DNA of 64,000 nucleotides, taken from positions 9,102,001-9,166,000 of the forward strand of contig NC_063259.1 of the NCBI RefSeq assembly GCF_019578655.1, in the 5' to 3' direction. The DNA is from Ricinus communis (Eukaryota > Streptophyta > Magnoliopsida > Malpighiales > Euphorbiaceae). A program made the position numbers and the translations under genes. Positions 26,047 to 64,000 of the stretch are shown piece after piece. The notes beneath the pieces are model-generated. The model had not been told where the DNA came from. It did not search any database and worked only from the letters and a program-made list of their open reading frames with translations. The stretch's first letter is position 1. Each line of letters starts with the position of its first letter.

Positions 26047-26056
26047 ATATGACTAA

Positions 26057-27172: not shown

Positions 27173-27210
27173 ACACACTCTTGTCAAGCTTCATTGTGAG
27201 TGTAAAGATC

Positions 27211-28128: not shown

Positions 28129-28224
28129 CTGTGCTTTGCCATATAGACACTCAAATATAGGGATATCAATGTTCAATTTCGGTGTGAAGATCAAACTAGA
28201 GATAAATTGCACCTTAGATCAACA
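28129..28224 (-). mobile_element. First ~95 bases of the copia 5' LTR, in original orientation
   Basis: GTGCTTTGCCATATAGACAC through GATCAACA aligns with 21,321-21,415, the start of the LTR read on the minus strand. It marks the original right end of the copia element in the CACTA host. CACTA coding sequence resumes straight after it. Confidence 0.85.
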
Positions 28225-38231: not shown

Positions 38232-38506
38232 TATAAGGAATAGTCCATTAAACAATAAATTAAAAATAAAGATATACAAATAAAGAAGTTGCCTTTCAGA
38301 TCTATCCTAGATGTGGCAAAGCTTCCTTTTGGAATTAAGAAACGCCACTCAATTTGTAAAGGTGTCCTGGAGCTTTACTCGGGTAGCAACTCCCATCTTT
38401 GCACTATTCTCTATAATTAGTTAGTGTGTTCCTATTACGTTGAAAAGACTTGGAGTGCCGTATTCGCTAGAGACACTTAGGTGCACCCCCGAAACTGCCG
38501 TCCATA
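38232..38506 (+). mobile_element. Right end of the Tat LTR
   Basis: This is the continuation of the LTR after the nested insertion, ending just before the primer-binding site. It is assigned by position between the insertion and the PBS. Confidence 0.55.
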
Positions 38507-38507
38507 G

Positions 38508-38525
38508 TGGCAACTCCGCTAGGGA
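38508..38525 (+). promoter_or_regulatory. Primer-binding site of the Tat element
   Basis: TGGCAACTCCGCTAGGGA is close to TGGCGACTCCGCTGGGGA, the form I know from Tat/Ogre-type plant elements (tRNA-Arg type). Two or three substitutions separate them. It fixes the LTR/internal border. Confidence 0.7.
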
Positions 38526-39250
38526 TAAGAAAAGTTGATTTTAGTGTATCTTTTTCTTTAATTTTATTATTTACTGAGTGATTCTTGCATCATTTGCATG
38601 GTTACTTTTGGTCCCAATAGCCTCGATGGCGTCGGTTAATGGTACTTTGCTTCCACTCGAACTTTGTAATTGCGAAACTAGCCAACCATCACTTATAAGA
38701 AATGAGTGAATTTCCTTCGTTGCATGGACCCTTTAGTAGGGAGACGAGCTAAGGAATGACACCTTTTACCTGTGGGAGCCTTTTATCCTTATTCAAGACT
38801 CAACTCATGGTAATGACAGTAGCAGTTTTCCTTAAGAAACCATTTTGCTTACTATTTGAGATATTATGCTTTTAAGTGTTTTAGGCCCACATATCAAAAG
38901 GCCTTAGCTCAAAATTGTGGTAACAGGCCTTAGGGCCAAAATATGGAGGCTTTGCCCTTATTTTGGAAAATATCGCCTTTTCTGCTTTAGATTACTTTGA
39001 GAGTTTATAGTATGCACATCAGACCTACTATCCCCTGTTGATAGAAATCCCAGAACCAATATCTTAGTAAAGAAAGACTCGTAATGAACTGTGTGTAGAA
39101 GTAATAAGGTCGGGAGGATGGTTTGTGTAGTAACTTGTAAAATATTATGTGTTTGTTAACCCTTTTTCTTATGTCTTTTGTGCATTTTATGTGCATCATA
39201 CTAACACCTTATTTTTTAGCCATATAGACTCTCCAGTTGTAAATCTGGTC
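38526..39250 (+). other. Untranslated leader of the Tat element
   Basis: 0.7 kb between PBS and gag without a coding frame. TTAGGCCCACATATCAAAAGG and CAGGCCTTAGGGCCAAAAT near 38,880-38,940 give short GC-containing repeats. Confidence 0.5.
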
Positions 39251-39251
39251 T

Positions 39252-40720
39252 ATGCTAGAATACCTTGAAAGACCAAGACATCAAGCTTCTATGATTGAAG
39301 TTGGAACTACATCAGAAATGGCCAACAAAAAAGCTAATGAGCAGGACGTCGAGATCCTTAAGAATGTTGTCATAGATGATTTAAGGGGTGTAATCTAGGA
39401 GAAGCTCCAACAACTTTTGGCTAGGATAGCTGCAAATCAAGCCTTGCCTATTGCCCTAATTACATCAGTTGCCCCCTGCGGTAGCTAATCCTTCTATTGT
39501 TGTTAATCCAGTTGTAATTACTGCTGAAATTGCTACCATTGTCACAGTTGTTGCTAATGCTAATGTTGAAAGCCCTGCTAGGAGAGGAATGCCCCAAAAT
39601 TTTTTAAAATTTGATGAGTACATGTTGGACCAGGCTAAAAGAGAGACTGACCTTGCCACTAATGAAGCTATGAGTAGTTTGAGTGTTAGGGTTGACAAGA
39701 TGCAAGGCATGTTGGAAATCAAAGGGTTGGACTCGACCTATGATTTTAAAGAGCTGGTTTTGACATGCGAAGACAAGCTGCCTGCAAAGTTCAAGATGCT
39801 TGATATGAATAAGTTCAACAAGATTGGTGATCTAAAAGTTCATCTGAAGCAATATGTCATCATCATGGAAACTGCTCAGCTAAGTAGGATCCCAATTATC
39901 AAGCTATTTGTACTGTCCTTAGAAGGATCAATTATAAACTGGTACCACGGACTGAAAAAATCTGCTAAAGCTAAATGACGTGACTTATTTAATTCTTTTA
40001 TCAAACCATATGATTACAACGCTCATTTGGAGGTGTCAATAAAGGACCTTGAGTCCACTAAGAAAAAACCAAATGAGTCCACTAAGAAAAGACCAAATAA
40101 GTCATTCTCTGATATCTTAACCAGGTGGAGAAATAAGGCTGGGTTAATGAAGAACAAGCCTTCAGGAAAGGACCAAGTATGTATGGTAGTCTGAAATTTT
40201 TTTCTAGGATAGGTAGAGAGGCTATAAATGATGAACCTAAAGACCTTCATAGATTTATATGACGATGGGCTTTACGTTGAAGAGATAGAAAATGAGAAAA
40301 GAAAGACTGTGCGAACTGGCGGGAGGCCGAATTATCAGGCTGGAGGGAGCAAAAAATTAGATGGGAATATTGTCTAAAACCCAAGGGAGTTCTCCAACTT
40401 CAAGCAACCTCTCTTGAGAATTTTTAAGAGGTTTGTGCAAAATGGTGTGCTCTAACAACCACCTTTAAGAACCCACCTAACCCCAATGTACCCCATTACA
40501 AACCCAACACCTATTATAGATTTCACCTAGCACCCGGTAACCACACAAATAGTTGCATCCAGCTTAAGCATGAAATTTAAGACCTCATTAATGCTGGAAA
40601 GTTGACTGATCCAGACCAACCTAATACCAAAAGAAACCTCTTACTAAGCTACAATAATACACCACCCTTAGACCAAGTGTCCATGATCACCCCTGATTCA
40701 ATAAAAACAAGGTTATGGAC
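39252..40720 (+). pseudogene. Gag of the Tat-lineage Ty3/gypsy element
   Basis: The frame opens MLEYLERPRHQASMIEVGTT and shifts near 39,478. The main block (39,469-39,978) has KFKMLDMNKFNKIGDLKVHL, KLFVLSLEGSIINWYHGLKK, then a stop. It continues FNSFIKPYDYNAHLEVSIKD and FSDILTRWRNKAGLMKNKPS, the capsid domain typical of Tat gag. A C-terminal CQLKHEIQDL-type motif appears near 40,560 and again near 40,950. There is no clear CCHC zinc knuckle. The stretch from 40,020 to 40,110 repeats TCCACTAAGAAAAGACCAAA in tandem. Stops and frameshifts make it inactive. Confidence 0.83.
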
Positions 40721-41579
40721 TCTTTTTTTTAAGACATATCCCAACCCGAGCCAGAGCCAGAGCTAGAGCCAAAAAGTCCACAAAGAACCTTCATCGAGTT
40801 GAGGATACCATTATTTATGGTATTCTCACATCTAGTAAGAAGCAAGAGACTCAAGCCCTAATCATCGATAAGTGGTCCTAACCTTCACAATGGTAAATAT
40901 TATGAGTATCACTAGGTTTTCGAGTATGTGATGGATTAGTGTAATCGTTTCAAGCATGAAATTCAGGACCTGATAAACTGTAAGGAATGGCAAGTGGAGC
41001 AATTTTCTTGGTATGAATATGAAGACCTATTAGGGGCACCCCTAAGGTAAATTTAATTTCAAAGTTTGTTATTCGAGGCCTCCTTTAGTTGACATTCTAA
41101 TTTAGGATATTATGCCGAGTGGATAGGGATCGGATGACAAGGATCAAGCAGTTAGTGGTTCTTGCCTTCTAGAGGTATGGAAGGAGGAAGAGAATAAGTG
41201 AGTGATGGCTACAGCCATTTGGTATAACTTCAGGAATGAGTGTGAGGTCCAAGGCAGTAGGGTAAAAGATATTTAAGCAGAGAACAACTTTGATAAAGAA
41301 GCCGAGCCAATGGGTAAGGGTAAGGACACAGGGGTACAAGTTGAAACAGGTCGAGAAAGCGTCAGAAGAAGAGGATAAGGGGTTATTTAAACAGTTAAAG
41401 AAAAATAAGAAGATGGTTGACATTTGGGAGCTGTTGATATACAACATTAGATCATATAAAGGCTCTAATCTAGGCCGTATCTAGTATCACTATATGCATA
41501 ATAGCTACCTTTGAGGAAACTATCAAAACGGTAATTAAAAAAAGCCGCTAGGATGATTATTTTCTTATATGAGGACCTA
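40721..41579 (+). pseudogene. Gag-protease linker of the Tat element
   Basis: Broken frames. RFKHEIQDLINCKEWQVEQF near 40,950 repeats the gag tail motif, and MVDIWELLIYN near 41,415 matches the region preceding the protease in Tat polyproteins. No separate gene is present. Confidence 0.5.
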
Positions 41580-42240
41580 CCACTAGAGGAAAGAGACCAC
41601 AATAAGCCTCTCTTTATTGTAGTATAGGAAAAAAGGAAGAGGACCCCATATATAATGGTGGATGATGGGTCATCTATCAATGTATGTCCTTGTGTACTCT
41701 CTAAACTAGGGATGACTATGAATAACCTGAAACCATTAGACACAGTTATAAGAGCATATGATGAGATGAAAAGAGATGTGGAAGGGATGTTTTCAGCACT
41801 GGTAAAAATGGATCCTATTGAATCTTGGGTAGAATTGACTATGCTGGACATCCCAATAACTTTCACTTTGTTATTAAGTAGGCTATGATTTCATGCCCTA
41901 AGAAGAGTCCCTTCCATTGTGCATCAGAAGCTCAAATTCCCTCATGAGGGTGAGATAATCGCCATCAATGCCAAAGGTGGTAAGGTTGTCTCAACCATTC
42001 AAGAAGCTGCCAAGGAGCTGGAAGCCCTTATTGGATTCTAAGTTGTTGTCCTCTGTGAGGACTCTACTAAAGTGGCCAACATGTTCAAAAAAATGGACTT
42101 ATGCTTGGCATGGGGCTGGAAAAGAATCAATAGGGTATTGTAGAGCTGCTGGACTTCAAGGGGTAAAAGACTCGACATGGACTTGGTTACCATGAGGAGG
42201 AAGATGGGGGAACACCAAAGGGTAAGACTCTAAAAGACAT
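41580..42240 (+). pseudogene. Aspartic protease of the Tat element
   Basis: IMVDDGSSINVCPCVLSKLG is the retroviral-type protease active-site region, with DDGS in the form found in Tat elements. It is followed by AYDEMKRDVEGMFSALVKMD, WVELTMLDIPITFTLLL and VPSIVHQKLKFPHEGEIIAI, all conserved in order. Frames break after 41,888. The expected G-patch-like/RT linker is only faintly readable (KVANMFKKMDLCLAWG). Reverse transcriptase does not follow: the 39-bp satellite begins at about 42,317. Confidence 0.83.
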
Positions 42241-43416
42241 TTTTGTCTAGGAGTACAACCCCTACTCTAGGGAGCTCGAGCCTGTTAAAGTAGCTACGAC
42301 TGAGGTGTCAGGATTCAAAATCTTTCAAAATGAGAAAACAACCCCGTAAGAGGGGTATATCTTTCAACATGAGAAAACTACCCCAAAAAAGTGGTATACT
42401 AGTCAATTTGACAAAACAACCCCATAAAAGGGGTAAATTTGTCAAAATTAGAAAACAATTCTGTAAAAGAGATATATCTTTTAACAAGAGAAAAAATCCC
42501 AAAAAAGTAGGATAATTTTTAATACGAGAAAACAACCCCTCAAGAGGGATATATTTGTCAATATTAGAAAACAACCCCGTAAGAGGGCTATATTTGTCAA
42601 TATTAGAAAACAACCCCGTAAGAGGGGTATATTTGTCAATATTAGAAAACGACCTCATAAGAGGGGTATATCTTTCGACATGAGAAAACAACTCCAAAAA
42701 AGTGGTATATTTTTTAATACGAGAAAACAACCCGTAAGAGGGGTATATTTGCCAATATTAGAAAATAAACCTGTAAGAAAGGTATATCTTTCAACATCAG
42801 AAAACAGCACCAAAAAAGTGGTATATATTTTAATACGAGAAAACAACCCTGTAATAGAGGTATATTTCTCAATATTAGAAAACAACCCAATAAGAGGGGT
42901 ATATTAGTCAATATTAGAAAACAACACCGTAAGAGGGGTATATCATTCAACATGGTAAAACAACCCTAAAAAAGTGGTATATTTATCAATATGAGAAACA
43001 CATGCCGAATAAGAGGGGTATATTTGTCAAAATTAGAAAACAACCCCGTAAGTGGGGTATTTCTTTCAACATGAGAAAACAACCCCATAAAAGTGGTATA
43101 TTTTTTCATACGAGAAAACAACACCGTTAAAGGGGTATGTTTGTCAATATTAGAAAATAACCCCGTAAGAGGGGTATGTGTGTCAATATTTGGAAACAAC
43201 CTCGTAAAATGGGTATATCTTTCAACATGAGAAAACAAACCTAAAAAAGTGGTAAATTTTTTAATACGAGAAAACAACACCGTAAGAGGGGTATATTTGC
43301 CAACATTAGACAACAGTCCTGGAAGAGGGGTATATTTGTCAATATTAGATAACGACCTCGTAAGAAGGGTATATCTTTCGACATGAGAAAACAGCTCCAA
43401 AAAAGTGGTATATTTT

Positions 43417-45145
43417 TTAATATGAGAAAACAACCCGTAAGAGGGGTATATTTGCCAATAGTAGAAAACAAACCTGTAAAAAGGGTATATCTTTCAACAT
43501 CAGAAAACAGTGCCAAAAAAGTGGTATATATTTTAATACGAGAAAACAACCCTGTAATAGGGGTATATTTCTCAATATTAGAAAACAACCCAATAAGAGG
43601 GGTATGTTTGTCAATATTAGAAAACAACCCCGTAAGAGGGGTATATCTTTGAACATGAGAAAACAACCCCAAAATAGTGGAATTTTTGTCAAAATGAGAA
43701 AACAACTCCGTAAGAGGGGTATATCTTTCAACATGAGAAAACTACCCCAAAAAAGTGGTATACTTGTCAATTTGACAAAAGAACCCCATAAGAGGGTAAA
43801 TTTGTCAAAATTAGAAAACAATTCCGTAAAAGAGATATATCTTTTAACAAGAGAAAACAATCCCAAAAAAGTAGGATAATTTTTAATACGAGAAAACAAC
43901 CCCTCAAGAGGGATATATTTGTCAATATTAGAAAACAACCCCGTAAGAGGGCTATATTTGTCAATATTAGAAAACAACCCCGTAAGAGGGGTATATCATT
44001 CAACATGGTAAAACAAAAAAGTGGTATATTTATCAATATGAGAAATACAACCCCGTAAGAGGTGTATATTTGTCAAAATTAGAAAACAACCCCGTAAGTG
44101 GGGTATATCTTTCAACATGAGAAAACAACCCCAAAAAAGTGGTATATTTGTCTATATGAGAACACAACCCTGTAAGAAGAGTATATTTCTCAATATTAGA
44201 AAACAACCCAGTAAGAGAGGCATGTTTGTCAATATTAGAAAACAACGCCGTAAGAGGGGTATATCTTTCAACATTGAGAAAATAACCCCGTAAGAGGGGT
44301 AAATTTGTCAAAATTAGAAAACAATTTCGTAAAAGAGGTATATCTTTCAACATGAGAAAACAACCCCAAAAAAGTAGTATATTTTTTAATACGAGAAAAC
44401 AACCCCTCAAGAGGGATATATTTGATAATATTAAAAAAAACCCGGTAAGAGGGGTCTATTTGTCAATATTAGAAAAAGAAACCCCGTAAGAGGGGTATAT
44501 CATTCAACATGGTAAAACAACCCCAAAAAAGTGGTATATTTGTCAATATGAGAAACACAACCCCGTAAGAGGGGTATATTTGTCAAAATTAGAAAACAAC
44601 CCCGTAAGAGGGGTATGTTTGTCAATATTTGGGAACAACCCCGTAAGAGCAGTATATCTTTCAACATCAGAAAACAAACCTAAAAAAATGGTAAATTTTT
44701 TAATACGAGAAAGCAACCCCGTAGGAGGGGTATATTTGCCAATATTAGACAACAATCCCGGAAGAGGGGTATATTTGTCAATATTAGATAACGACCTCGT
44801 AAGAAGGGTATATCTTTCGACATGAGAAAACAGCTCCAAAAAAGTGGTATATTATTTAATACGAGAAAACAAACCGTAAGAGGGGTATATTTTGCCAATA
44901 TTAGAAAACAAACCTGTAAGAAGTGTATATCTTTCAACATCAGAAAACAGCGTCAAAAAAGTGGTATATATTTTAATACGAGAAAACAACCCTGTAATAG
45001 GGTTATATTTCTCAATATTAGAAAACAACCCAGTAAGAGGGGTGTGTTTGTCAATATTAGAAAACAACTCCATAAGAGGCGTATATCTTTCAAGATGAGA
45101 AAATAACCCCAAAATAGTGGAATTTTTGTCAACATGAGAAAACAA
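43417..45145. repeat. Super-repeat block, copy a
   Basis: The order of variant monomers in this block recurs at 47,071-48,761 (offset about 3,616-3,667) and 52,200-53,730 (a further 5,129). Shared rare variants include a monomer with an extra T (TATATTTTGCC near 44,890 and 48,505) and shortened ones such as CATGGTAAAACAAAAAAGTGG (near 44,010, 47,660, 52,790). Confidence 0.88.
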
Positions 45146-47070
45146 CCCCGTAAGAGGGGTATATTAGAAAATAACCCCGTAAGAGAGGTATATCTTTCAA
45201 CATGAGAAAACTACCCCGAAAAAGTGGTATATTTGTCAATTTGACAAAACAGCTGCGTAAGAGGGGTAAATTAGTCAAAAATAGAAAACAATTCCGTAAA
45301 AGAGATATATCTTTTAACAAGAGAAAATAACCTCAAAAAAGTAGTAAATTTTTTAATACGAGAAAACAACCCCTCAAGAGGGATGTATTTGTCAATATTA
45401 GAAAACAACCCCGTAAGAGGGGTATATTTATCAATATTAGAAAATAACCCTATAAGAGGGGTATATCATTCAACATGGTAAAAGAACCACAAAAAAGTGG
45501 TATATTTTTCAATGTGAGAAACACAACCCCGTAAGAGGTGTATATTTGTCAAAATTAGAAAACAACCCCGTAAGTGGGGTATTTCTTTCAACATGAGAAA
45601 ACAACCCCAAAAAAGTGCTATATTTGTCAACATGAGAAAACAACACAGTAAGAGGGGTATATTTATCAATATTAGAAAATAACCCCTTAAGAGGGGTATA
45701 ACTTTCAATATGAGAAAACAACCCCGAAAAAGTAGTATATTTTTTAATAGGAGAAAACAACCCCTCAAGACGGATATATTTGTCAATATTAGAAAACAAC
45801 CCCGTCAGAAGGGTATATTTGTCAATATTAGAAAACAACCCCGTAAGAGGGGTATATCATTCAATATGGTAAAACAATCACAAAAAAGTAGTATATTTAT
45901 CAATATAAGAAACACAACCCCGTAAGCGGTGTATATTTGTCAAAATTACAAAACAACCCCGTAAGTGGGGTATTTCTTTCAACATGAGAAAACAACCCCA
46001 AAAAAGTGCTATATTTGTCAACATGAGAAAACAACACAGTAAGAGGGGTATATTTATCAATATTAGAAAATAACCCCGTAAGAGGGGTATAACTTTCAAC
46101 ATGAGAAAACAACCACGTTAGAGGGGTATATTTGTAAAAAATAGAAAACAACCCCGTAAGAGGAGTATGTTTGTCAATATTTGGAAACAACCCGGTAAGA
46201 GGGGAATATCTTTCAACATGAGAAAACAAACCTAAAAAAGTGATAAATTTTTTAATACGAGAAAACAACCCCGTAAGAGGAGTATATTTGTCAATATTAG
46301 AAAATGACCTCATAAGAGGGGTATATCTTTCGACATGAGAAAACAACTCCAAAAAAGTGGTATATTTTTTAATACGAGAAAACAACCCGTAAGAGGGTTA
46401 TATTTGCTAAGATTAGAAAACAAACCTGTAAGAAAGGTACATCTTTCAACATCAGAAAACAGCCCCAAAAAAGTGGTATATATCTTAATACGAGAAAACA
46501 ACCATGTAATAGAGGTATATTTCTCAATATTAGAAAACAACCCAGTAAGAGGGGTATATAAGTCAATATTAGAAAACAACCCCGTAAGAGTAGTATATCA
46601 TTCAACATGGTAAAACAACCCTAAAAAAGTGGTATATTTATCAATATGACAAACACATCCCCGTAAGAGGGGTATATTTGTCAAAATTAGAAAACAACCT
46701 CGTAAGTGGGGTATTTCTTTGAACATGAGAAAACAACCCCATAAAAGTGGTATATTTTTTCATACGAGAAAACAACACCGTTAAAGGGGTGTGTTTGTCA
46801 ATATTAGAAAATAACCCCGTAAGAAGGGGTATGTTTGTCAATATTTGAAAACAACCTCGTAAAATGGGTATATCTTTCAACATGAGAAAACAAACCAAAA
46901 AAGTGGTACATTTTTTAATACGAGAAAACAACACCGTAGGAGGGGTATATTTGCCAACATGAGAAAATAATCCCGGAAGAGGGGTATATTTGTCAATATT
47001 AGATAACGAGCTCGTGAGAAGGGTATATCTTTCGACATGAGAAAACAGCTCCAAAAAAGTGGTATATTTT

Positions 47071-48761
47071 TTAATATGAGAAAATAACCCGTAAGAGGGG
47101 TATATTTGCCAATATTAGAAAATAAACCTGTAAGAAGGGTATATCTTTCAACATCAGAAAACAACGCCAAAAAAGTGGTATATATTTTAATACGAGAAAA
47201 CAACCCTGTAATAGAGGTATATTTCTCAATATTAGAAAACAACCCAATAAGAGGGGTATGTTTGTCAATATTAGAAAACAACCTCGTAAGAGGGGTATAT
47301 CTTTGAACATGAGAAAACAACCCCAAAATAGTGGAATTTTTGTCAAAATGGGAAAACAACCCCGTAAGAGGGGTATATCTTTCAACATGAGAAAACTACC
47401 CCAAAAAAGTGGTATACTTGTCAATTTGACAAAACAACCCCATAAGAGGGGTAAATTTGTCAAAATTAGAAAACAATTCCGTAAAAGAGATATATATTTT
47501 AACAAGAGAAAACAATCCCAAAAAAGTAGGATATCTTTTAATACGAGAAAACAACCCCTCAAGAGGGATATATTTATCAATATTAGAAAACAACCCCGTA
47601 AGAGGGCTATATTTGTCAATATTAGAAAACAACCCCGTAAGAGGGGTATATCATTCAACATGGTAAAACAAAAAAGTGGTATATTTATCAATATGAGAAA
47701 CACAACCCCGTAAGAGGTGTATATTTGTCAAAATTAGAAGTCAACCCCGTAAGTGGGGTATATCTTTCAACATGAGAAAACAACCCCAAAAAAGTGGTAT
47801 ATTTGTCCATATGCGAACACAACCCTGTAAGAAGAGTATATTTCTCAATATTAGAAAACAACCCAATAAGAGAGGCATGTTTGTCAATATTAGAAAACAA
47901 CGCCGTAAGAGGGGTAAATTTGTCAAAATTAGAAAACAATTCCGTAAAAGAGGTATATCTTTCAACATGAGAAAGCAAGCCCCAAAAAAGTAGTATATTT
48001 TTTAATACCAGAAAACAACCCCTCAAGAGGGATATATTTGTTAATATTAGAAAAAAATCCCGTAAGAGGGGTCTATTTGTCAATAGTAGAAAAAAAACCC
48101 CGTAAGAGGGGTATATCATTCAACATGGTAAAACAACCCCAAAAAAGTGGTATGTTTGTCAATATGAGAAACACAACCCCGTAAGAGGGGTATATTTGTC
48201 AAAATTAGAAAACAACCCCGTAAGAGGGGTATGTTTGTCAATATTTGGGAACAACACCGTAAGAGCAGTATATCTTTCAACATCAGAAAACAAACCTAAA
48301 AAAATGGTAAATTTTTTAATACGAGAAAGCAACCCCGTAAGAGGGGTATATTTGAGAATATTAGACAACAATCCCGGAAGAGGGGTATATTTGTCAATAT
48401 TAGATAACGACCTCGTAAGAAGGGTATATCTTTCGACATGAGAAAATAGCTCCAAAAAAGTGGTATATTATTTAATACGACAAAACAAACCGTAAGAGGG
48501 GTATATTTTGCCAATATTAGAAAACAAACCTGTAAGAAGTGTATATCTTTCAACATCAGAAAACAGCGCCAAAAAAGTGGTATATATTTTAATACGAGAA
48601 AACAACCCTGTAATAGGGTTATATTTCTCAATATTAGAAAACAACCCAGTAAGAGGGGTGTGTTTGTCAATATTAGAAAACAACCCCGTAAGAGGCGTAT
48701 ATCTTTCAAGATGAGAAAATAACCCCAAAATAGTGGAATTTTTGTCAACATGAGAAAACAA
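47071..48761. repeat. Super-repeat block, copy b
   Basis: Copy of 43,417-45,145. Comparing its frames with copy c at 52,200 shows only a few amino-acid-level differences over 200 codons, so the duplication is recent relative to monomer divergence. Confidence 0.88.
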
Positions 48762-51520
48762 CCCCGTAAGAGGGGTATATTAGAAAATAACCCCGTAAGA
48801 GGGGTATATCTTTCAACATGAGAAAACTACCCCGAAAAAGTGGTATATTTGTCAATTTGACAAAACAACCGCGTAAGAGGGGTAAATTAGTCAAAAATAG
48901 AAAACAATTCCGTAAAACAGATATATCTTTTAACAAGAGAAAATAACCCCAAAAAAGTAGTAAATTTTTTAATACGAGAAAACAATCCCTCAAGAGGGAT
49001 ATATTTGTCAATATTAGAAAACAACCCCGTAAGAGGGGTATATTTGTCAATATTAGAAAACAACCCCGTAAGAGGGGTATATTTGTCAATATTAGAAAAT
49101 AACCCTATAAGAGGGGTATATCATTCAACATGGTAAAACAACCACAAAAAAAGTGGTATATTTTTCAATATGAGAAACACAACCCCGTAAGAGGTGTATA
49201 TTTGTCAAAATTACAAAACAACCCCGTAAGTGGGGTATTTCTTTCAACATGAGAAAACAACCCCAAAAAAGTGCTATATTTGTCAACATGAGAAAACAAC
49301 ACAGTAAGAGGGGTATATTTATCAATATTAGAAAATAACCCCTTAAGAGGGGTATAACTTTCAATATGAGAAAACAACCCCGAAAAAGTAGTATATTTTT
49401 TAATAGGAGAAAACAACCTCTCAAGACGGATATATTTGTCAATATTAGAAAACAACCCCGTAAGAGGGGCATATCATTCAATATGGTAAAACAACCACAA
49501 AAAAGTAATATATTTATCAATATAAGAAACACAACCCCGTAAGAGGTGTATATTTGTCAAAATTACAAAACAACCCCGTAAGTGGGGTATTTCTTTCAAC
49601 ATGAGAAAACAACCCCAAAAAAGTGCTATATTTGTCAACATGAGAAAACAACACAGTAAGAGGGGTATATTTATCAATATTAGAAAATAACCCCGTAAGA
49701 GGGGTATAACTTTCAATATGAGAAAACAACCACGTTAGAGGGGTATATTTGTAAAAAATAGAAAACAACCCCGTAAGAGGAGTATGTTTGTCAATATTTG
49801 GAAACAACCCGGTAAGAGGGGAATATCTTTCAACATGAGAGAACAAACCTAAAAAAGTGGCAAATTTTTTAATACGAGAAAACAACCCCGTAAGAGGAGT
49901 ATATTTGTCAATATTAGAAAACGACCTCATAAGAGGGGTATATCTTTCGACATGAGAAAACAACTCCAAAAAAGTAGTATATTTTTTAATACGAGAAAAC
50001 AACCCGTAAGAGGGGTATATTTGCTAAGATTAGAAAACAAACCTGTAAGAAAGGTACATCTTTCAACATCAGAAAACAACCCTAAAAAAGTGGTATATAT
50101 TTTAATACGAGAAAACAACCATGTAATAGAGGTATATTTCTCAATATTAGAAAAAAACTCAGTAAGAGGGGTATATTAGTCAATATTAGAAAACAACCCC
50201 GTAAGAGGCGTATATCTTTCAAGATGAGAAAATAACCCCAAAATAGTGGAATTTTTGTCAACAAGAGAAAACAACCCCGTAAGAGGGGTATATTAGAAAA
50301 TAACCCCGTAAGAGGGGTATATCTTTCAACATAAGAAAACTACCCCGAAAAAGTGGTATATTTGTCAATTTGACAAAACAACCGCGTAAGAGGGGTAAAT
50401 TAGTCAAAAATAGAAAACAATTCCGTAAAAGAGATATATGTTTTAACAAGAGAAAATAACCCCAAAAAAGTAGTAAATTTTTTAATACGAGAAAACAACC
50501 CCTCAAGAGGGATATATTTGTCAATATTAGAAAACAACCCCGTAAGAGGGGTATATTTGTCAATATTAGAAAATAACCCTATAAGAGGGGTATATCATTC
50601 AACATGGTCAAACAACCACAAAAAAGTGGTATATTTTTCAATATGAGAGACACAACCCCGTAAGAGGTGTATATTTGTCAAAATTACAAAACAACCCCGT
50701 AAGTGGGGTATTTCTTTCAACATGAGAAAACAACCCCAAAAAAGTGCTATATTTGTCAACATGAGAAAACAACACAGTAAGAGGGGTATATTTATCAATA
50801 TTAGAAAATAACCCCTTAAGAGCGGTATAACTTTCAATATGAGAAAACAACCCCGAAAAAGTAGTATATTTTTTAATAGGAGAAAACAACCCCTCAAGAC
50901 GGATATATTTGTGAATATTAGAAAACAACCCCGTCAGAAGGGTATATTTGTCAATATTAGAAAACAACCCCGTAAGAGGGGTATATCATTCAATATGGTA
51001 AAACAACCACAAAAAAGTAGTATATTTATCAATATAAGAAACACAACCCCGTACGAGGTGTATATTTATCAAAATTACAAAACAACCCCGTAAGTGGGGT
51101 ATTTCTTTCAACATGAGAAAACAACCCAAAAAATGTGCTATATTTGTCAACATGAGAAAACAACACAGTAAGAGGGGTATATTTATCAATATTAGAAAAT
51201 AACCCCGTAAGAGGGGTATAACTTTCAACATGAGAAAACAACCACGTTAGAGGGGTATATTTGTAAAAAATAGAAAACAACCCCGTAAGAGGAGTATGTT
51301 TGTCAATATTTGGAAACAACCCGGTAAGAGGGGAATATCTTTCAACATGAGAAAACAAACCTAAAAAAGTGGTAAATTTTTTAATACGAGAAAACAACCC
51401 CGGAAGAGGAGTATATTTGTCAATATTAGAAAATGACTTCATAAGAGGGGTATATCTTTCGACATGAGAAAACAACTCCAAAAAAGTGGTATATTTTTTA
51501 ATACGAGAAAACAACCCGTA
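48500..51520. repeat. Tandem duplication of a ~1.51-kb block within the array
   Basis: Variant order at 49,517-50,002 recurs at 51,029-51,514 (offset 1,512) and that at 48,468-48,751 recurs near 50,264 (offset 1,513). This extra duplication turns the usual ~3.6-kb spacing into 5.13 kb between copies b and c. Confidence 0.83.
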
Positions 51521-52199
51521 AGAGGGGTATATTTGCTAAGATTAGAAAACAAACCTGTAAGAAAGGTACATCTTTCAACATTAGAAAACAGCCCCAAAAA
51601 AGTGGTATATATTTTAATACGAGAAAACAACCATGTAATTGAGGTATATTTCTCAATATTAGAAAACAACCCAGTAAGAGGGGTATATTAGTCAATATTA
51701 GCAAATAACCCCGTAAGAGTAGTATATCATTCAACATGGTAAAACAACCCTAAAAAAGTGGTATATTTATCAATATGAGAAACACATCCCCGTAAGAGGG
51801 GTATATTTGTCAAAATTAGAAAACAACCCCGTAAGTGGGCTATTTCTTTCAACATGAGAAAACAACCGTATAAAAGTGGTATATTTTTTCATACGAGAAA
51901 ACAACACCGTTAAAGGGGTGTGTTTGTCAATATTAGAAAATAACCCCGTAAGAAGGGGTATGTTTGTCAATATTTGGAAACAACCTCGTAAAATGGGTAT
52001 ATCTTTCAACATGAGAAAACAAACCTAAAAAATGGTACATTTTTTAATACAAGAAAACAACACCGTAGGAGGTGTATATTTGCCAACATGAGACAACAAT
52101 CCCGGAAGAGGGGTATATTTGTCAATATTAGATAACGACCTCGTAAGAAGGGTATATCTTTCGACATGAGAAAACAGCTCCAAAAAAGTGGTATATTTT

Positions 52200-53730
52200 T
52201 TAATATGAGAAAACAACCCGTAAGAGGGGTATATTTGCCAATATTAGAAAATAAACCTGTAAGAAGGGTATATCTTTCAACATCAGAAAACAACGCCAAA
52301 AAAGTGGTATATATTTTAATACGAGAAAACAACCCTGTAATAGAGGTATATTTCTCAATATTAGAAAACAACCCAATAAGAGGGGTATGTTTGTCAATAT
52401 TAGAAAACAACCTCGTAAGAGGGGTATATCTTTGAACATGAGAAAACAACCCCAAAATAGTGGAATTTTTGTCAAAATGAGAAAACAACCCCGTAAGAGG
52501 GGTATATCTTTCAACATGAGAAAACTACCCCAAAAAAGTGGTATACTTGTCAATTTGACAAAACAACCCCATAAGAGGGGTAAATTTGTCAAAATTAGAA
52601 AACAATTCCGTAAAAGAGATATATCTTTTAACAAGAGAAAACAATCCCAAAAAAGTAGGATATTTTTTAATACGAGAAAACAACCCCTCAAGAGGGATAT
52701 ATTTGTCAATATTAGAAAACAACCCCGTAAGAGGGCTATATTTGTCAATATTAGAAAACAACCCCGTAAGAGGTGTATATCATTCAACATGGTAAAACAA
52801 AAAAGTGGTATATTTATCAATATGAGAAACACAACCCCATAAGAGGTGTATATTTGTCAAAATTAGAAGACAACCCCGTAAGTGGGGTATATCTTCAACA
52901 TGAGAAAACAACCCCAAAAAAGTGGTATATTTGTCCATATGAGAACACAACCCTGTAAGAAGAGTATATTTCTCAATATTAGAAAACAACCCAATAAGAG
53001 AGGCATGTTTGTCAATATTAGAAAACAACGCCGTAAGAGGGGTAAATTTATCAAAATTAGAAAACAATTCCGTAAAAGTGGTATATCTTTCAACATGAGA
53101 AAGCAAGCCCCAAAAAAGTAGTATATTTTTTAATACGAGAAAACAACCCCTCAAGAGGGATATATTTGTTAATATTAGAAAAAAACCCCGTAAGAGGGCT
53201 CTATTTGTCAATATTAGAAAAAAAACCCTGTAAGAGGGGTATATCATTCAACATGGTAAAACAACCCCAAAAAAGTGGTATATTTGTCAATATGAGAAAC
53301 ACAACCCCGTAAGAGGGGTATATTTGTCAAAATTAGAAAACAACCCCGTAAGAGGGGTATGTTTGTCAATATATGGGAACAACACCGTAAGAGCGATATC
53401 TATCAACATCGAAACAAACCTAAAAAATGGTAAATTTTTAATACGAGAAAGCAACCCCAGGAGGGGTATATTTGCCAATATTAGACAACAATCCCAGAAG
53501 AGGGGTATATTTGTCAATATTAGATAACGACCTCGTAAGAAGGGTATATCTTTCGACATGAGAAAACAGCTCCAAAAAAGTGGTATATTATTTAATACGA
53601 GAAAACAAACTGTAAGAGGGGTATATTTTGCCAATATTAGAAAACAAACTGTAAGAAGTGTATATCTTTCAACATCGGAAAACAAATACCAAAAAGTGGT
53701 ATATATTTTAATACGAGAAAACAACTCACA
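52200..53730. repeat. Super-repeat block, copy c
   Basis: Offset 5,129 from copy b. The first 1.1 kb is nearly identical; from about 53,385 it carries a dense cluster of small deletions that neither other copy has. Confidence 0.86.
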
Positions 53731-54234
53731 AGAGGGTTATATTTCTCAATATTAGAAAACAACCCAAGAGGGGTGTGTTTGTCAATATTAGAAAACAACC
53801 CCGTAATAAAGTGATATCTTCAAGATGAGAAAATAACCCCAAAATAGTGAAATTTTTGTCAACATGAGAAAACAACCCCGTAAGAGGGGTATATTAGAAA
53901 ATAACCCCGTAAGAGGGGTATATCTTTCAACATGAGAAAACTACCCCGAAAAAGTGGTATATTTGTCAATTTGACAAAACAACCGCGTAAGAGGGGTAAA
54001 TTAGTCAAAAATAGAAAACAATTCTGTAAAAGAGATATATCTTTTAACAAGAGAAAATAACCCCAAAAAAGTAGTAAATTTTTTAATACGAGAAAACAAT
54101 CCCTCAAGAGGGATATATTTGTCAATATTAGAAAACAACCCCGTAAGAGGGGTATATTTGTCAATATTAGAAAACAACCCCGTAAGAGGGGTATATTTGT
54201 CAATATTAGAAAATAACCCTATAAGAGGGGTATA

Positions 54235-54996
54235 TCATTCAACATGGTAAAACAACCACAAAAAAGTGGTATATTTTTCAATATGAGAAACACAACCCCG
54301 TAAGAGGTGTATATTTGTCAAAATTACAAAACAACCCCGTAAGTGGGGTATTTCTTTCAACATGAGAAAACAACCCCAAAAAAGTGCTATATTTGTCAAC
54401 ATGAGAAGACAACGATGAAGAGGGGTATATTTATCAATATTAGAAAATAACCCCTTAAGAGGGGTATAACTTTCAATATGAGAAAACAACCCCAAAAAAG
54501 TAGTATATTTTTTAATAGGAGAAAACAACCCCTCAAGACGGATATATTTGTCAATATTAGAAAACAACCCCGTAAGAGGGGTATATCATTCAATATGGTA
54601 AAACAACCACAAAAAAGTAGTATATTTATCAATATAAGAAACACAACCCCGTAAGAGGTGTATATTTGTCAAAATTACAAAACAACCCCATAAGTGGGGT
54701 ATTTCTTTCAACATGAGAAAACAACCCCAAAAAAGTGCTATATTTGTCAACATGAGAAGACAACACAGTAAGAGGGGTATATTTATCAATATTAGAAAAT
54801 AACCCCTTAAAAGGGGTATAACTTTCAATATGAGAAAATAACCCCAAAAAAGTAGTATATTTTTTAATAGGAGAAAACAACCCCTCAAGACGGATATATT
54901 TGTCAATATTAGAAAACAACCCCGTAAGAGGGGTATATCATTCAATATGGTAAAACAACCACAAAAAAGTAGTATATTTATCAATATAAGAAACAC
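54235..54996. repeat. Tandem duplication of 352 bp within the array
   Basis: 54,235-54,644 and 54,586-54,996 carry the same variant order at offset 352, equal to nine monomers with one base gained. It is a local short-range duplication. Confidence 0.8.
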
Positions 54997-57900
54997 AACC
55001 CCGTAAGAGGTGTATATTTGTCAAAATTACAAAACAACCCCGTAAGTGGGGGGTATTTCTTTCAACATGAGAAAACAACCCCAAAAAAGTGCTATATTTG
55101 TCAACATGAGAAAACAACACAGTAAGAGGGGTATATTTATCAATATTAGAAAATAACCCCGTAAGAGGGGTATAACTTTCAACATGAGAAAACAACCACA
55201 TTAGAGGGGTATATTTGTAAAAAATAGAAAATAACCCCCTAAGAGGAGTATGTTTGTCAATATTTGGAAACAACCCGGTAAGAGGGGAATATCTTTCAAC
55301 ATGGGAAAACAAACCTAAAAAAGTGGTAAATTTTTTAATACGAGAAAGCAACCCCGTAAGAGGAGTATATTTGTCAATATTAGAAAACGACCTCATAAGA
55401 GGGGTATATCTTTCGACATGAGAAAACAACTCCAAAAAAGTGGTATATTTTTTAATACGAGAAAACAACCCGTAAGAGGGGTATATTTGCTAAGATTAGA
55501 AAACAAACCTGTAAGAAAGGTACATCTTTCAACATCAGAAAACAGCCCTAAAAAAGTGGTATATATTTTAATACGAGAAAACAACCATGTAATAGAGGTA
55601 TATTTCTCAATATTAGAAAACAACCCAATAAGAAGGGTATATTAGTCAATATTAGAAAACAACCCCGTAAGAGTAGTATATCATTCAACATGGTAAAACA
55701 ACCCTAAAAAAGTGGTATATTTATCAATATGAGAAACACATCCCCGTAAGAGGGGTATATTTTCAAAATTAGAAAACAACCCCGTAAGTGGGCTATTTCT
55801 TTCAACATGAGAAAACAACCCCATAAAAGTGGTATATTTTTTCATACGAGAAAACAACACCGTTAAAGGGTGTGTTTGTCAATATTAGAAAATAACCCCG
55901 TAAGAAGGGGTATGTTTGTCAATATTTGGAAACAACCTGGTAAAATGGGTATATCTTTCAACATGAGAAAACAAACCTAAAAAAGTGGTACATTTTTTAA
56001 TACGAGAAAACAACACCGTAGGAGGGGTATATTTGCCAACATGAGACAACAATCCCGGAAGAGGGGTATATTTGTCAATATTAGATAACGACCCCGTAAG
56101 AAGGGTATATCCTTCGACATGAGAAAACAGCTCCAAAAAAGTGGTATATTTTTTAATAGGAGAAAACAACCCATAAGAGGGGTAAATTAGTCAAAAATAG
56201 AAAACAATTCCGTAAAAAAGTAGTAAATTTTTTAATACGAGAAAACAACCCCTCAAGAGGGATATATTTGTCAATATTAGAAAATAACCCCGTAAGAGGG
56301 GTATATTTGTCAATATTAGAAAATAACCCCGTAAGAGGGGTATATTTGTCAATATTAGAAAATAACCCTATAAGAGGGGTATATCATTCAACATGGTAAA
56401 ACAACCACAAAAAAGTGGTATATTTTTCAATATGAGAAACACAACCCCGTAAGAGGTGTATATTTGTCAAAATTAGAAAACAACCCCGTAACTGGGGTAT
56501 TTCTTTCAACATGAGAAAACAACCCCAAAAAAGTGCTATATTTGTCAACATGAGAAAACAACACAGTAAGAGGGGTATATTTATCAATATTAGAAAATAA
56601 CCCCTTAAGAGGGGTATAACTTTCAATATGAGAAAACAACCCCAAAAAAGTGGTATATTTTTTTATACGAGAAATCGACCCCGTTGGAGGGGTATATTTG
56701 TCAAAAATAGAAAACAACCCCGTAAGAGGAGTATGTTTGTCCATATTTGGAAACAACCCCGCAAGAGGGGAATATCTTTCAACATGAGAAAACAAACCTA
56801 AAAAAGTGGTAAATTTTTTAATACGAGAAAACAACCCCGTAAGAGGGGTATATTTGCCAATATTAGACAACAATCCCGTAAGAGGGGTATATTTGTCAAT
56901 ATTAGAAAACGACCTCATAAGAGGGGTATATTTGCCAACATTTGACCACAATCCCGGAAGAGGGGTGTATTTGTCAATATTAGATAACGACCTCGTAAGA
57001 AGGGTATATCTTTCGACATGAGAAAATAGCTCCAAAAAAGTGGTATATTTTTTAATACGAGAAAACAACCCGTAAGAGAGGCATATTTGCCAATATTAGA
57101 AGACAAACCTGTAAGAAAGGTATATCTTTCAACATCAGAAAACAGACCTAAAAAAGTGGTATATATTTTAATACGAGAAAACAACCCTGTAATAGAGGTA
57201 TATTTCTCAATATTAGAAAACAACCTAGTAAGAGGGGTATATTAGTCAATAATAGAAAACAACCCCATAAGAGGGGTATATCATTCAACATGGTAAAACA
57301 ACCCCCAAAAAGTGGTATATTTATCAATATGTGAAACACAACCCCGTAAGAGGGGTATATTTGTCAAAATTAGAAAACAACCCCGTAAGTGAGGTATTTC
57401 TTTCAACATGAGAAAACAACCCCATAAAAGTGGTATATTTTTTCATACGAGAAAACAACACCGTTAAAGGGGTATGTTTGTCAATATAAGAAAATAACCC
57501 CGTAAGAGGGGTATGTTTGTCAATATTTGGAAATAACCCCGTAAAATGGGTATATCTTTCAACATGAGAAAACAAACCTAAAAAAGTGGTAAATTTTTTA
57601 GTACGAGAAAACAACCTCGTAGGAGGGGTATATTTGCCAAAATTAGACAACAATCCCGGAAGTGGGGTATATTTGTCAATATTAGATAACGACCTCGTAA
57701 GAAGGATATATCTTTCGACATGAGAGAACAGCTCCAAAAAAGTGGTATATTTTTTAATTCGAGAAAACAACCCGTAAGAGAGGTATATTTGCCAATATTA
57801 GAAAACAAACCTGTAAGAAGGGTATATCTTTCAACATCAGAAAACAGCACCAAAAAAGTGGTATATATTTTAATACGAGAAAGCAACCCTGTAATAGGGG

Positions 57901-58841
57901 TATATTTCGAATATGAGAAAACAACCCAATAAGAGGGGTATGTCTTTCAACATGAGAAAACAACCCCAAAATAGTGGATTTTTGTCAACATGAGAAAATA
58001 ATCCCGTAAGAGGGGTATATTAGAAAATAACCTCGTAAGAGGGGTATATCTTTCAACATGAGAAAATAACCCCGTAAGAGGAGTACATTTGTCAAAATTA
58101 GAAAATAATTCCGTAAAAGATACATCTTTCAACCTGAGAAAACAACCCCAAAATAGTGGAATTTTTGTCAACATGAGAAAACAACCCCGTAAGAGGGTTA
58201 TATTAGAAAATAACCCCGTAAGAGAGGTTTATCTTTAAACATGAGAAAACTACTCCAAAAAAGTGGTATATTTGTCAATTTGACAAAATAACCACATAAC
58301 AGGGGTAAATTTGTCAAAATTAGAAAAAAATTCCGTAAAAGAGAAAACAATCCCAAAAAAGTAGTATATTTTTTAATACGAGAAAACAACCCCTCAAGAG
58401 GGATATACTTGTCAATATTAGAAAACAACCCCGTAAGAGGGGTATATTATTCAACATGGTAAAACAACCACAAAAAAGTGGCATATTTATCAATATGAGA
58501 AACACAAACCCATAAGAGGTGTATATTTGTCAAAATTAGAAAATAACCCCGTAAGTGGGGTATATCTTTCAACATGAGAAAACAACCCTAAAAAATTGGT
58601 ATATTTGTCAATATGAGAACACAATGCCGTAAGAGGGGTATATTTATCAATATTAGAAAATAACCCCGAAAGAGGGGTATAACTTTCAACATGAAAAAAC
58701 AATCCCAAAAAAGTGGTATATTCTTTCATACGAGAAAACAACCCCGTTAAAGGGGTATGTTTGTCAATATTAGAAAATAACCCCGAAAGAGGGGTATGTT
58801 TGTCAATATTTGGAAACAACCCCGTAAGAGGGGTATATCTT

Positions 58842-61800
58842 TCAACATGAGAAAACAAACCTAAAAAAGTGGTAAGTTTTTTTAATACGAGAGAACAACC
58901 CTGTAGGAGGGGTATATTTACCAATATTAGACAACAATCCCGGAAGAGGGGTATATTTGTCAATATTAGATAACAACCTCATAAGAAGGGTATATCTTTC
59001 GACATGAGAAAACAGCTCCAAAAAAGTGGTATATTTTTTAATACGAGAAAACAACCCGTAAGAGGGGTATATTTGCCAATATTAGAAAACAAACCTGTAA
59101 GAAGGGTATATCTTTCAACATCAGAAAACAGCGCCAAAAAAGTGGTATATATTTTAATACGAGAAAACAACCCTGTAATAGAGGTATATTTCTGAATATG
59201 AGAAAACAACCCATTAAGAGGGGTATGTTTGTCAATATTAGAAAACAACCCCGTAAGAGGGGGTATATGTTTTTACATGAGAAAACAACCCCAAAATAGT
59301 GGAATTTTTGTCAACATGAGAAAATAACCCCGTAAGAGGGGTATATCTTTCAACATGACAAAATAACACCGTTAGAGGGGTAAATTTGTCAAAATTAGAA
59401 AACAATTCCGTAAAAGAGATATATCTTTTAACAAGAGAAAACAACCCCAAAAAAGAAGTATATATTTTAATACGAGAAAACAACCCCTCAAGAGGGATAT
59501 ACTTGTCAATATTAGAAAACAACCCCGTAAGAGGGGTATATTATTCAACATGGTAAAACAACCACAAAAAAGTGGTATATTTATCAATATGAGAAACACA
59601 AACCCGTAAGAGGTGTATATTTGTCAAAATTAGAAAACAACCCCATAAGTGGGGTATATCTTTCAACATGAGAAAATAACCCCGTAAGAGGGGTATATTA
59701 TTCAACATGGGAAAACAACCACAAAAAGTGGTATATTTATCAATATGAGAAACATAACCCCGTAAAGGGTGTATATTTGTCAAAATTAGAAAACAACCCT
59801 GTAAGTGGGGTATATCTTTCAACATGTGAAAACAACTCCAAAAAAGTGGTATATTTATCAATATGAGAACACAATGCTGTAAGAGGGGTATATCTTTCAA
59901 CATGAGAAAATAACCCTGTAAGAGGGGTAAATTAGTCAAAATTAGAAAACAATTCCGTAAAAGAGGTATATCTTTCAACATGAGAAAACAATTCCGTAAA
60001 AGAGGTATATCTTTCAACAGGAGAAAACAACCCCACAAAAGTAGTATATTTTTTAATACGAGAAAACAACCCCTCAAGAGGGATATATTTGTTAATATTA
60101 GAAAACAACCCCGTAAGAGGGGTCTATTTGTCAATATTAGAAAACAACCCTGTAAGAGGGGTATATCATTGAACATGGTAAAACAACCCCAAAAAAGTAG
60201 TATATTTATCAATATGAGAAACATAACCCCGTAATAGGGAAATATTTGTCAATATTAGGAAACAACTCCGTAAGTAGGGTATATTAGTCAATATTAGAAA
60301 ACAACCCCGTAAGAGGGTATATTTGTCAATATTAGTAAACAACTCCGTAATAGGGGTATATCATTCAAAATGAGAAGACAAGCCCAAAAAAGTGGTATAT
60401 TTGTCAATATGAGGAAACAACCCCGTAAAAAGGGGTATGTTTGTAAATATGAGAAAACAATCCCGTAAGAGGGGTATATTTGTCAATATTAGAAAATAAC
60501 CCCGTAAGAGTGGTATAATTGTCAATGTTAGAAAAATAAACCCTATAAAAGGGGTACATCTTTTAATATTAGAAAACTACCCCAAAAAAGTGGTATGTTT
60601 GTAAATATGAGAAAACATCCCCGTAAGTGGGGTATATTTGTCAATATTAGAAAACAACCCCGTAAGAGGGGTATATAATTCAACGTGAGAAAATAACCAT
60701 AAAAAACTAGAATATTTGTCAATATGAGAAAACAACCCCGTAAGAGGGGTATATTTGTCAATATTAGAAAACAACCTTGTAAGAGGGGTATATTTGTCAA
60801 AACTAGAGAACAACCCCGTAAGAGGGGTATATCTTTCAACATAAGAAAACACCACGAGAAAAGTGTTATATTTGTCAAGATGAGAAAACAACCCCGTAAG
60901 AGGGGTATATTTGTCAATATTAGAAGACAACCCCGTAAGAGGGCTAAATCTTTCAACATGAGAAAACAAGCCCAGAAAAATGGTATATTCTTAAATACAA
61001 GAAAACAACCCCTTTAGAGGGGTATATTTGTAATTATTAGAAAATAACCCATAAGAGGGCTATATTGGTCTATATTAGAAAATAATCCTGTAAGAGGATT
61101 TTATTTATGAATATTAGAAAACCACCCCATAACTAGGCTATATCTTTCAACATAAGAAAACAACCCCAAAATAGTAGAATATTTGTAGATCTGAGAAAAC
61201 AACCTCGTAAGAGGGGTATATATGTCAATATTAGAAAAAAACCCCGGAAGAGTGGTATATTCGTCAATATTAGAAAAGAAGCCCGTAAGATTGGTATATC
61301 TTTCAACATGAGAAAACAACCCTAAAAAAAGTAGTATATTTTTCAATATGAGAAAACAACCCCGTAAGGGTGTATTTGTCATTATTACAAAACAACCTCG
61401 TAAGAGGGGTACGTCTTTCAACATGAGAAAACAACCCCAAAAAAGTGTTATATTTGTTAATATGAGAAAACTACCCCGTAACAGAGGAATATTTGTCAAT
61501 ATTAGAGAACAACCCCGTAAGAGGAGTATATATTTCCACATGAGAAAACAATCCCAAAAAAGTAGTATATTTTCTAATACTAGAAAACAACCCCGTAAGA
61601 GGTGTATATTTGTTAATATTACAATACAACCCCGTAAGAGGTGTATATCTTTCAAAATGAGAAAACAACCTCAAAAAGCTGGTATATTTGTCAATATGAG
61701 AAAACAACCCCGTAAGAGTGTTATATTTGTCAATATGAGAAAACAATCCCGTAAGTGGGGTATATTTGTCAATATTAGAAAACGACCCCGTAAGAGGGGT

Positions 61801-64000
61801 ATATTTGTCAATATTAGAAAACAACCCAATAAGAGGGGTATATCCTTCAAAATGAGAAAACAACGCCAAAAAAGTGGTATATTGGTCAATATAAGAAAAC
61901 AACCTCGTAAGAGGGGTATATTTTTCAATTTTAGAAAACAACCCCGTAAGAGGGGTATATCTTTCAACATGAGAAAACAACCCCAAAAAAGTGGTATATT
62001 TTTTCATACGAGAAAACAACCCCGTTAAAGGGGTATGTTTGTCAATATTAGAAAATAACCCCGAAAGAGGGGTATGTTTGTCAATATTAGAAAATAACAC
62101 CGAAAGAGGGGTATGTTTGTCAATATTTGGAAACAACCCCGTAAGAGGGGTATATCTTTCAACATGAGAAAACAAACCTAAAAAAGTGGTAAGTTTTTTT
62201 AACACGAGAGGACAACCCCATAGGAGGGGTATATTTACCAATATTAGACAACAATCCCGGAAGAGGGGTATATTTGTCAATATTAGATAACAACCTCGTA
62301 AGAAGGGTATATCTTTCGACATGAGAAAATAGCTCCAAAAAAGTGGTATATTTTAATACGAGAAAACAACCCGTACGAGGGGTATATTTGCCAATATTAG
62401 AAAACAAACTTGTAAGAAAGGTATATCTTTCAACATCAGAAAACAGCGCCAAAAAAGTGGTATATATTTTAATACGAGAAAACAACCCTGTAATAGGGGT
62501 ATATTTCTGAATATGAGAAAACAACCCATTAAGAGGGGTATGTTTGTCATTATTAGAAAACAACCCCGTAAGAGGGGTATATCTTTTAACATGAGAGAAC
62601 AACCCCAAAATAGTGGAATTTTTGTCAACATGAGAAAATAACCCCGTAAGAGGGGTATATCTTTCAACATGACAAAATAACCCCGTTAGAAGGGTAAATT
62701 TGTCAAAATTAGAAAATAATTCCGTAAAAGAAGTATATCTTTCAACATGAGAAAAAACCCCAAAATAGTGGAATTTTTGTCAACATGAGAAAACAACCCA
62801 GTAAGAGGGGTATATTAGAAAATAACCCCGTAAGAGGGGTATATCTTTCAACATGAGAAAACTACCCCAAAAAAGTGGTATATTTGTCAATTTGACAAAA
62901 CAACCCCGTAAGAGGGGTAAATTTGTCAAAATTAGAAAATAATTCCGTAAAAGAGATATATCTTTTAACAAGAGAAAACAACCCGAAAAAAGAAGTATAT
63001 TTTTAATACGAGAAAACAACCCTTCATGAGGGATATACTTGTCAATATTAGAAAACAACCCCGTAAGAGGGGTATATTTGTCAATATTAGAAAACAACCC
63101 CGTAAGAGGGGTATATTATTCAACATGGTAAAACAACCACACAAAAGTGGTATATTTATCAATATGAGAAACACAACCCCGTAAAGGGTGTATATTTGTC
63201 AAAATTAGAAAACAACCCCGTAAGTGGGGTATATATTTCAACATGAGAAAACAACTCCAAAAAAGTGGTATATTTGTCAATATGAGAACACAATGCCGTA
63301 AGAGGGATATATCTTTCAACATGAGAAAATAACCCTGTAAGAGGGGTAAATTTGTCAATAATTAGAAAACAATTCCGTAAAAGAGGTATATCTTTCAACA
63401 TGAGAAAACATTTCCGTAAAAGAGGTATATCTTTCAACATGAGAAAACAACCCCAAAAAAGTAGTATATTTTTTAATACGAGAAAATAACCCCTCAAGAG
63501 GGATATATTTGTTAATATTAGAGAACAACCCCGTAAGAGGGGTCTGTTTGTCAATATTAGAAAATAACTCCGTAAGAGGGGTATATCATTCAACATGGTA
63601 AAACAGCCCCAAAAAAGTGATATATTTATCAATATGAGAAACATAACCCCGTAATAGGGGAATATTTGTCAATATTAGAAAACAACTACGTAAGTAGGGT
63701 ATATTAGTCAATATTAGAAAACAACCCCGTAAGAGGGTATATTTGTCAATATTAGTAAACAACTCCGTAATAGTAGTATATCATTCAAAATAAGAAGACA
63801 AGCCCAAAAAAGTGGTATATCTGTCAATATAAGGAAACAGCCCCGTAAAAAGGAGTATATTTGTAAATATGAGAAAACAATCCCGTAAGAGGGGTATATT
63901 TGTCAATATTAGAAAATAACCCCGCAAGAGTGGTATAATTGTCAATGTTAGAAAAATAAACCCCATAAAAGGGGTACATCTTTCAATATTAGAAAACTAC
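58842..64000. repeat. Right-hand super-repeats, period about 3.3-3.6 kb
   Basis: Landmarks at 58,963, 59,248, 59,599 and 60,224 recur near 62,277, 62,569, 63,174 and 63,644 respectively. The last bases of the window (63,961-64,000) match 60,541-60,580 at offset 3,420. Offsets vary by whole monomers. The array therefore continues past the window in the same pattern. Confidence 0.84.

What the first reader, a model, noticed from the sequence alone, without database searches (positions are those of the whole stretch)
42317..64000. A 39-bp satellite forming an array of at least 21.6 kb
A very regular minisatellite-sized unit fills a third of the window with no interruption and runs off its end. 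I do not recognise the monomer as a known plant satellite. Array length, homogeneity of period and higher-order structure are those of a true satellite, although 39 bp is short compared with the usual 150-180 or 300-360 bp of plant satellites.
Basis: partly seen in the sequence, partly recalled or inferred. Interest (0 to 1): 0.82.

Follow-up and report, generated by a model that had tools for sequence, protein, structure and literature searches.

The report
Ordinary 39-bp plant satellite DNA array
A third of this plant DNA window is a short sequence of 39 letters repeated head to tail more than 550 times, which is a real satellite array with layered internal structure but of a kind already described in plants, possibly grown beside or out of a dead retrotransposon.

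Summary
One head-to-tail 39-bp array runs from about 42,318 to the window's end (TRF 42,323-63,997, 557 copies). I parsed 558 monomers without a break; 443 are exactly 39 bp. It is less homogeneous than claimed: two monomers share on average 76%, and 375 of 558 aligned monomers are distinct.

Higher-order structure is real. A diverged "B" monomer recurs every 3-4 units in 127 of 160 intervals, against 25% expected. On top lie segmental duplications, the largest 127 monomers at 97%, 5,130 bp apart. I find no sign of coding. A possible hairpin shows little support: two of five pairs co-vary, mostly through a few inherited variants.

The array starts abruptly beside what I read as a decayed Ty3/gypsy gag-protease region. 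That reading rests on recalled motifs; Pfam, PDB and a protein search gave no support. Short plant satellites with long arrays, 117-bp trimers or retrotransposon origin are published, so this is a new member of a known kind. I found no match to a described satellite, but could search neither repeat libraries nor the source genome.

The parts
42318..64000 (+). 39-bp satellite array, truncated by the window end; consensus TTTCAATATGAGAAAACAACCCCGTAAGAGGGGTATATT
   Evidence: TRF, cyclic profile parse into 558 monomers, boundary scan
44776..49710 (+). First copy of the largest segmental duplication (127 monomers, identity 0.970)
   Evidence: monomer identity matrix; 121 substitutions and 28 gap cells against 4,767 identical cells
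49906..54822 (+). Second copy of that duplication, 5,130 bp further on
60561..62039 (+). Stretch of 38 monomers outside any detected duplicated block of 12 or more monomers; B monomers still mostly 3-4 apart by eye
38500..42317 (+). Left flank: probable decayed Ty3/gypsy (Tat/Ogre-like) element, primer-binding-site-like sequence near 38,510, gag-like 39,300-40,600, protease-like 41,600-42,050; many stops and frame changes
   Evidence: sequence and three-frame translation read against recalled motifs; Pfam, PDB and protein searches of some of its pieces gave no support

Best explanation
The array is non-coding satellite DNA of a plant. It most likely began as a short tandem repeat in or next to a non-autonomous Tat/Ogre-type Ty3/gypsy retrotransposon and grew in steps after that element had died. 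An early step made a loose trimer/tetramer of one B and two or three A monomers (117-156 bp). Unequal exchange or replication-based copying then duplicated blocks, seen at lags of about 0.35, 1.5, 3.6 and 5.1 kb. Shown: the array, the A/B spacing, the nested blocks, and a left flank full of stops. Inferred: that the flank is Tat/Ogre-like, that the repeat came from it, the order of steps and the recombination mechanism. Any chromosomal role (heterochromatin, pericentromere) is untested.
For: 558 monomers in one orientation. B monomers 3 or 4 units apart in 127 of 160 intervals; 1,000 random placements gave mean 25%, largest 35%. Blocks of 12 or more monomers cover 88% of monomers, with lags of 351, 1,512, 3,616 and 5,130 bp among the 40 longest runs listed. 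The largest block copies differ by 121 substitutions in 4,888 compared cells, so they look like separate copies. The flank reads in the array's orientation as gag-like then protease-like, ending where the array starts (recalled motifs). Published parallel: nine of 11 Lathyrus satellites sit in Ogre elements downstream of gag-pol, and for two of them gag lies close to the array because pol is often deleted (PMC7004042, section 7 read in full).
Against: No database search supports the flank's identity. No reverse transcriptase or 3' LTR is in view, so chance abutment or insertion cannot be excluded. In the published scheme the tandem repeats lie after pol; here the array follows the protease-like region, so a pol deletion must be assumed. 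The nine Ogre-derived Lathyrus satellites showed no period longer than the monomer, unlike this array. No short copy of the 39-bp repeat lies elsewhere in the window.
Confidence: 0.48

Rival explanations
1. An ordinary satellite of independent origin. The gypsy-like fragment was simply broken by array growth, or the array landed there by recombination.
For: Abrupt edge with a 95% consensus monomer at the junction; nothing in the rest of the window resembles the monomer above shuffle level; gypsy and copia pieces also lie elsewhere in the window, so meeting one at the edge is unsurprising.
Against: The flank's gag-like and protease-like order and orientation (recalled motifs) match the arrangement described for pol-deleted Ogre elements, though one junction cannot decide.
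Confidence: 0.4
2. The repeat is maintained for a hairpin (CCCC-GTAAGA-GGGG) or for a 13-residue repeat protein, since 39 is 13 codons.
For: The consensus has a 4-bp stem (5 with A-T); stop-free frames up to 293 codons exist. Over 284 distinct gap-free monomers, changes on both sides that keep a Watson-Crick pair exceed 1,000 shuffles at two of five pairs (10 against mean 3.0, largest 8; 12 against mean 3.7, largest 10).
Against: At the other three pairs there is no excess (0, 5 and 3 against 0.4, 5.0 and 4.2). Nine of the 10 and 8 of the 12 cases fall in one cluster each of similar monomers, so they may be few inherited events; shuffles ignore relatedness. An intact 4-bp stem occurs in 62 of 284, shuffles 57.9 +/- 5.2, largest 73. 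The B class breaks the stem with T opposite C. For coding: 99 of 558 monomers shift the frame, and 97 of 100 shuffles of monomer order give a longest frame at least as long.
Confidence: 0.06
3. The array length is an assembly artefact.
For: Nested near-identical blocks are hard to assemble; no reads were available.
Against: The largest block pair differs at 2.5% of compared cells, 70 transitions and 51 transversions, more than consensus error should give (inference).
Confidence: 0.05

Closest known systems
Chenopodium CficCl-61-40 (f1) satellite family
   Same: About 40-bp monomer, arrays over 40 kb, and in C. acuminatum a 117-bp unit made of three 39-bp subrepeats (passages of PMC6429384 and PMC7591062 seen).
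   Different: Its conserved motif TTTCATTTGA has 0 exact matches in the window, though TTTCAATATGA here is similar by eye; its parent is given as a CACTA-like element.
Ogre-derived Lathyrus satellites (FabTR-51, -52 and -54 to -60)
   Same: Short monomers, and array growth from tandem repeats in Ty3/gypsy elements; for FabTR-54 and -57 gag lies close to the arrays because pol is often deleted (sections of PMC7004042).
   Different: Monomer sequences are in a data file that I could not read, so sequences were not compared. Those nine had no period longer than the monomer (passage); this array has.
Nigella Nb-Sat4
   Same: 39-bp monomer; (peri)centromeric signals on all chromosomes of N. bucharica and N. 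integrifolia (passages of PMC9261981).
   Different: Its two primers align to this consensus no better than shuffled primers.
Petunia PSAT6
   Same: 38- and 39-bp subrepeats, 65-70% alike (passage of PMC10587573).
   Different: Arrays of 1-2 kb; sequence not compared.

Membership tests
Satellite DNA | Long uninterrupted head-to-tail array of one monomer | tested here: met
Satellite DNA | Many copies and large arrays across the genome | not testable with these tools
   The genome search did not answer in eight tries
Satellite DNA | Higher-order structure and local homogenisation (common, not required) | tested here: met
Satellite derived from Tat/Ogre retrotransposon tandem repeats | Array lies inside an element, fixed in place relative to its domains | tested here: inconclusive
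   One edge only; gag-like and protease-like order, no database support
Satellite derived from Tat/Ogre retrotransposon tandem repeats | Short arrays of the same repeat in other element copies | not testable with these tools
Chenopodium CficCl-61-40 | Conserved TTTCATTTGA motif in each monomer | tested here: not met
   0 exact matches in the window; the motif is given
Nigella Nb-Sat4 | Sequence similarity | tested here: not met
   Only its two primers could be compared; scores at or below shuffled level
Centromeric satellite | CENH3 association | not testable with these tools
   Needs ChIP or CUT&Tag

The most novel reading that the evidence does not exclude
The 39-bp repeat is a species- or genus-specific satellite that recently arose from a pol-less Tat/Ogre-like element and is a main (peri)centromeric repeat of its host, with functional 117-156 bp A/B units of nucleosome-like length instead of a 150-180 bp monomer.
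Probability: 0.07. Interest if true: 0.5.

Novelty: new member of a known kind. Interest (0 to 1): 0.22.

Why it matters
It is one more short-monomer plant satellite with several visible layers of growth, and possibly a snapshot of a satellite abutting the retrotransposon that seeded it. If the origin were shown, it would extend the Lathyrus findings to another plant. Otherwise it is ordinary repeat annotation.

Tried and rejected
Hairpin under selection: not supported, though two of five pairs show an excess carried mostly by a few inherited variants. Coding repeat: rejected, frame broken and open frames no longer than in shuffles; the weak Pfam matches of three array frames are below their curated cut-offs. 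Rfam: 0 matches at gathering threshold in the window. tRNA: none. Exact monomer words in viral contigs and GTDB contigs: 0 matches, as expected for a plant repeat. One translated array frame against 5.8 billion proteins: 1,147 candidates, none at E <= 0.01; this may reflect how repetitive sequence is scored and proves nothing. BLASTN self-comparison returned no non-self hits although duplicated blocks exist, so I treat it as failed; the single orientation rests on the parse. Deamination: C-to-T and G-to-A differences from the consensus (0.119, 0.123 per site) exceed A-to-G (0.021), but T-to-C is 0.090 and G-to-T 0.110, so methylation is only hinted at. Host: a copia integrase piece has 224 relatives, 120 listed, the one with a source name being from Apostasia shenzhenica, an orchid, at 61%; the species of the window is not identified.

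Full report
Observation. TRF reports one array at 42,323-63,997 with period 39 and 557.4 copies. A cyclic profile alignment gave 558 monomers, 42,323-63,980, all read in + orientation, with no gap between neighbours. Lengths were 39 bp in 443, 40 in 45, 38 in 43, and other in 27. Mean identity to the consensus was 85%, range 67-97%, and roughly even along the array, 81-86% per 31 monomers. Of 558 aligned monomers 375 are distinct. Mean pairwise identity was 76%. AT skew is about 0.25 throughout the array. The left edge is sharp near 42,318; the right edge lies beyond the window.

Higher-order structure. A B monomer (consensus TTTCAACATGAGAAAACAACCCCAAAAAAGTGGTATATT, defined by T at position 31) makes up 161 of 558. 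Of 160 intervals between B monomers, 78 are 3 units and 49 are 4 units; 8 are 1 unit. Random placement gives 25% at 3-4 against the observed 79%. B, post-B and pre-B monomers are more alike within classes (0.81-0.83) than between (0.69-0.76). The 38 monomers at 60,561-62,039, outside detected long blocks, keep the spacing by eye with some exceptions, so the A/B pattern seems older than the blocks (inference). Runs of at least 12 monomers, extended while monomer identity stays above about 0.86, cover 88% of monomers. The largest is 127 monomers at a lag of 5,130 bp, identity 0.970; others among the 40 listed lie at lags of 351, 1,512, 3,616 and 3,655 bp. This nested pattern is what repeated unequal exchange or replication-based copying yields (established knowledge; mechanism inferred).

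Function tests. The consensus can pair CCCC with GGGG. Over 284 distinct gap-free monomers (445 of 558 are gap-free), all standard pairs other than the consensus pair, G-T included, come out at or close to expectation at each of five positions, and intact 4-bp stems occur in 62 against 57.9 +/- 5.2 in 500 shuffles. Counting only changes on both sides that keep a Watson-Crick pair, two of the five pairs exceed 1,000 shuffles (10 against 3.0; 12 against 3.7) and three do not. Nine of the 10 and 8 of the 12 fall in one cluster each of similar monomers, and among 311 column pairs tested for joint change these two rank 16th and 8th. I read this as a few inherited variants, with a selected stem unlikely but not excluded. 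Stop-free frames reach 293 codons, but 99 of 558 monomers shift frame, and 97 of 100 monomer-order shuffles give a frame at least as long. No Rfam family reaches its threshold and no tRNA is in the window.

Left flank. The 3.8 kb before the array read, in three frames with many stops, as a primer-binding-site-like stretch near 38,510, a gag-like region and an aspartic-protease-like region with a DDGSS motif, then the array. The resemblance to Tat/Ogre-type elements is recalled. Pfam gave nothing credible for the pieces scanned, the PDB nothing for the protease-like piece, and the gag-like piece found no protein at E <= 0.001 among 72 candidates. So the flank is probably, not certainly, a decayed gypsy element. 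It carries many stops, whereas the array holds copies 97% alike; array growth therefore seems to postdate the element's decay (inference). Pfam-supported gypsy-type RNase H pieces and copia gag and integrase pieces lie elsewhere in the window, which fits a plant genome.

Comparison with print. In Lathyrus sativus nine of 11 satellites derive from tandem repeats in Ogre elements, and one of them, FabTR-51, has arrays up to 174 kb (PMC7004042: passages, section 7 in full and part 1 of section 5). Monomers there start at 32 bp. In Chenopodium a 40-bp family forms arrays over 40 kb, and a 117-bp unit of three 39-bp subrepeats exists (passages of PMC6429384 and PMC7591062). Nigella has a 39-bp (peri)centromeric satellite (passages of PMC9261981), Petunia 38/39-bp subrepeats (passage of PMC10587573). 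About half of the potentially recently active Retand elements studied carry tandem repeats between pol and 3' LTR (passages of PMC11963269, part of the abstract among them). Sequence comparison was possible only for Nb-Sat4 primers (no match) and the Chenopodium motif (absent). Six words of the monomer, searched in the full text of the paper library, gave four papers (listing only): two on Mycoplasma, one on chicken cells, one on safflower microsatellite markers; the core word CCCCGTAAGAGGGG and its complement occur in none. That is a weak test, since monomers usually sit in supplements.

Verdict. A genuine satellite array of a known kind. It is probably an undescribed sequence, but this was not tested against repeat libraries. 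Its origin in the decayed gypsy-like element beside it is plausible and not proven.

Noticed in passing
18412-20626: A 1.1-kb direct tandem duplication (85-90% alike in its pieces); parts of it and of the sequence up to 21315 recur inverted within 26057-27134 (seven inverted arm pairs).
   Followed up: no
25388-28160: Copia-type remnants: integrase core and SH3-like domain on the - strand, a copia gag piece on the + strand at 27600-28160.
   Followed up: partly
1194-1532 and 5686-6150: Two reverse-transcriptase RNase H pieces on the - strand; 162 nt of them are 98% identical.
   Followed up: no
12104-12379: Three copies of a 66-nt repeat, two of them adjacent and 98% alike.
   Followed up: no
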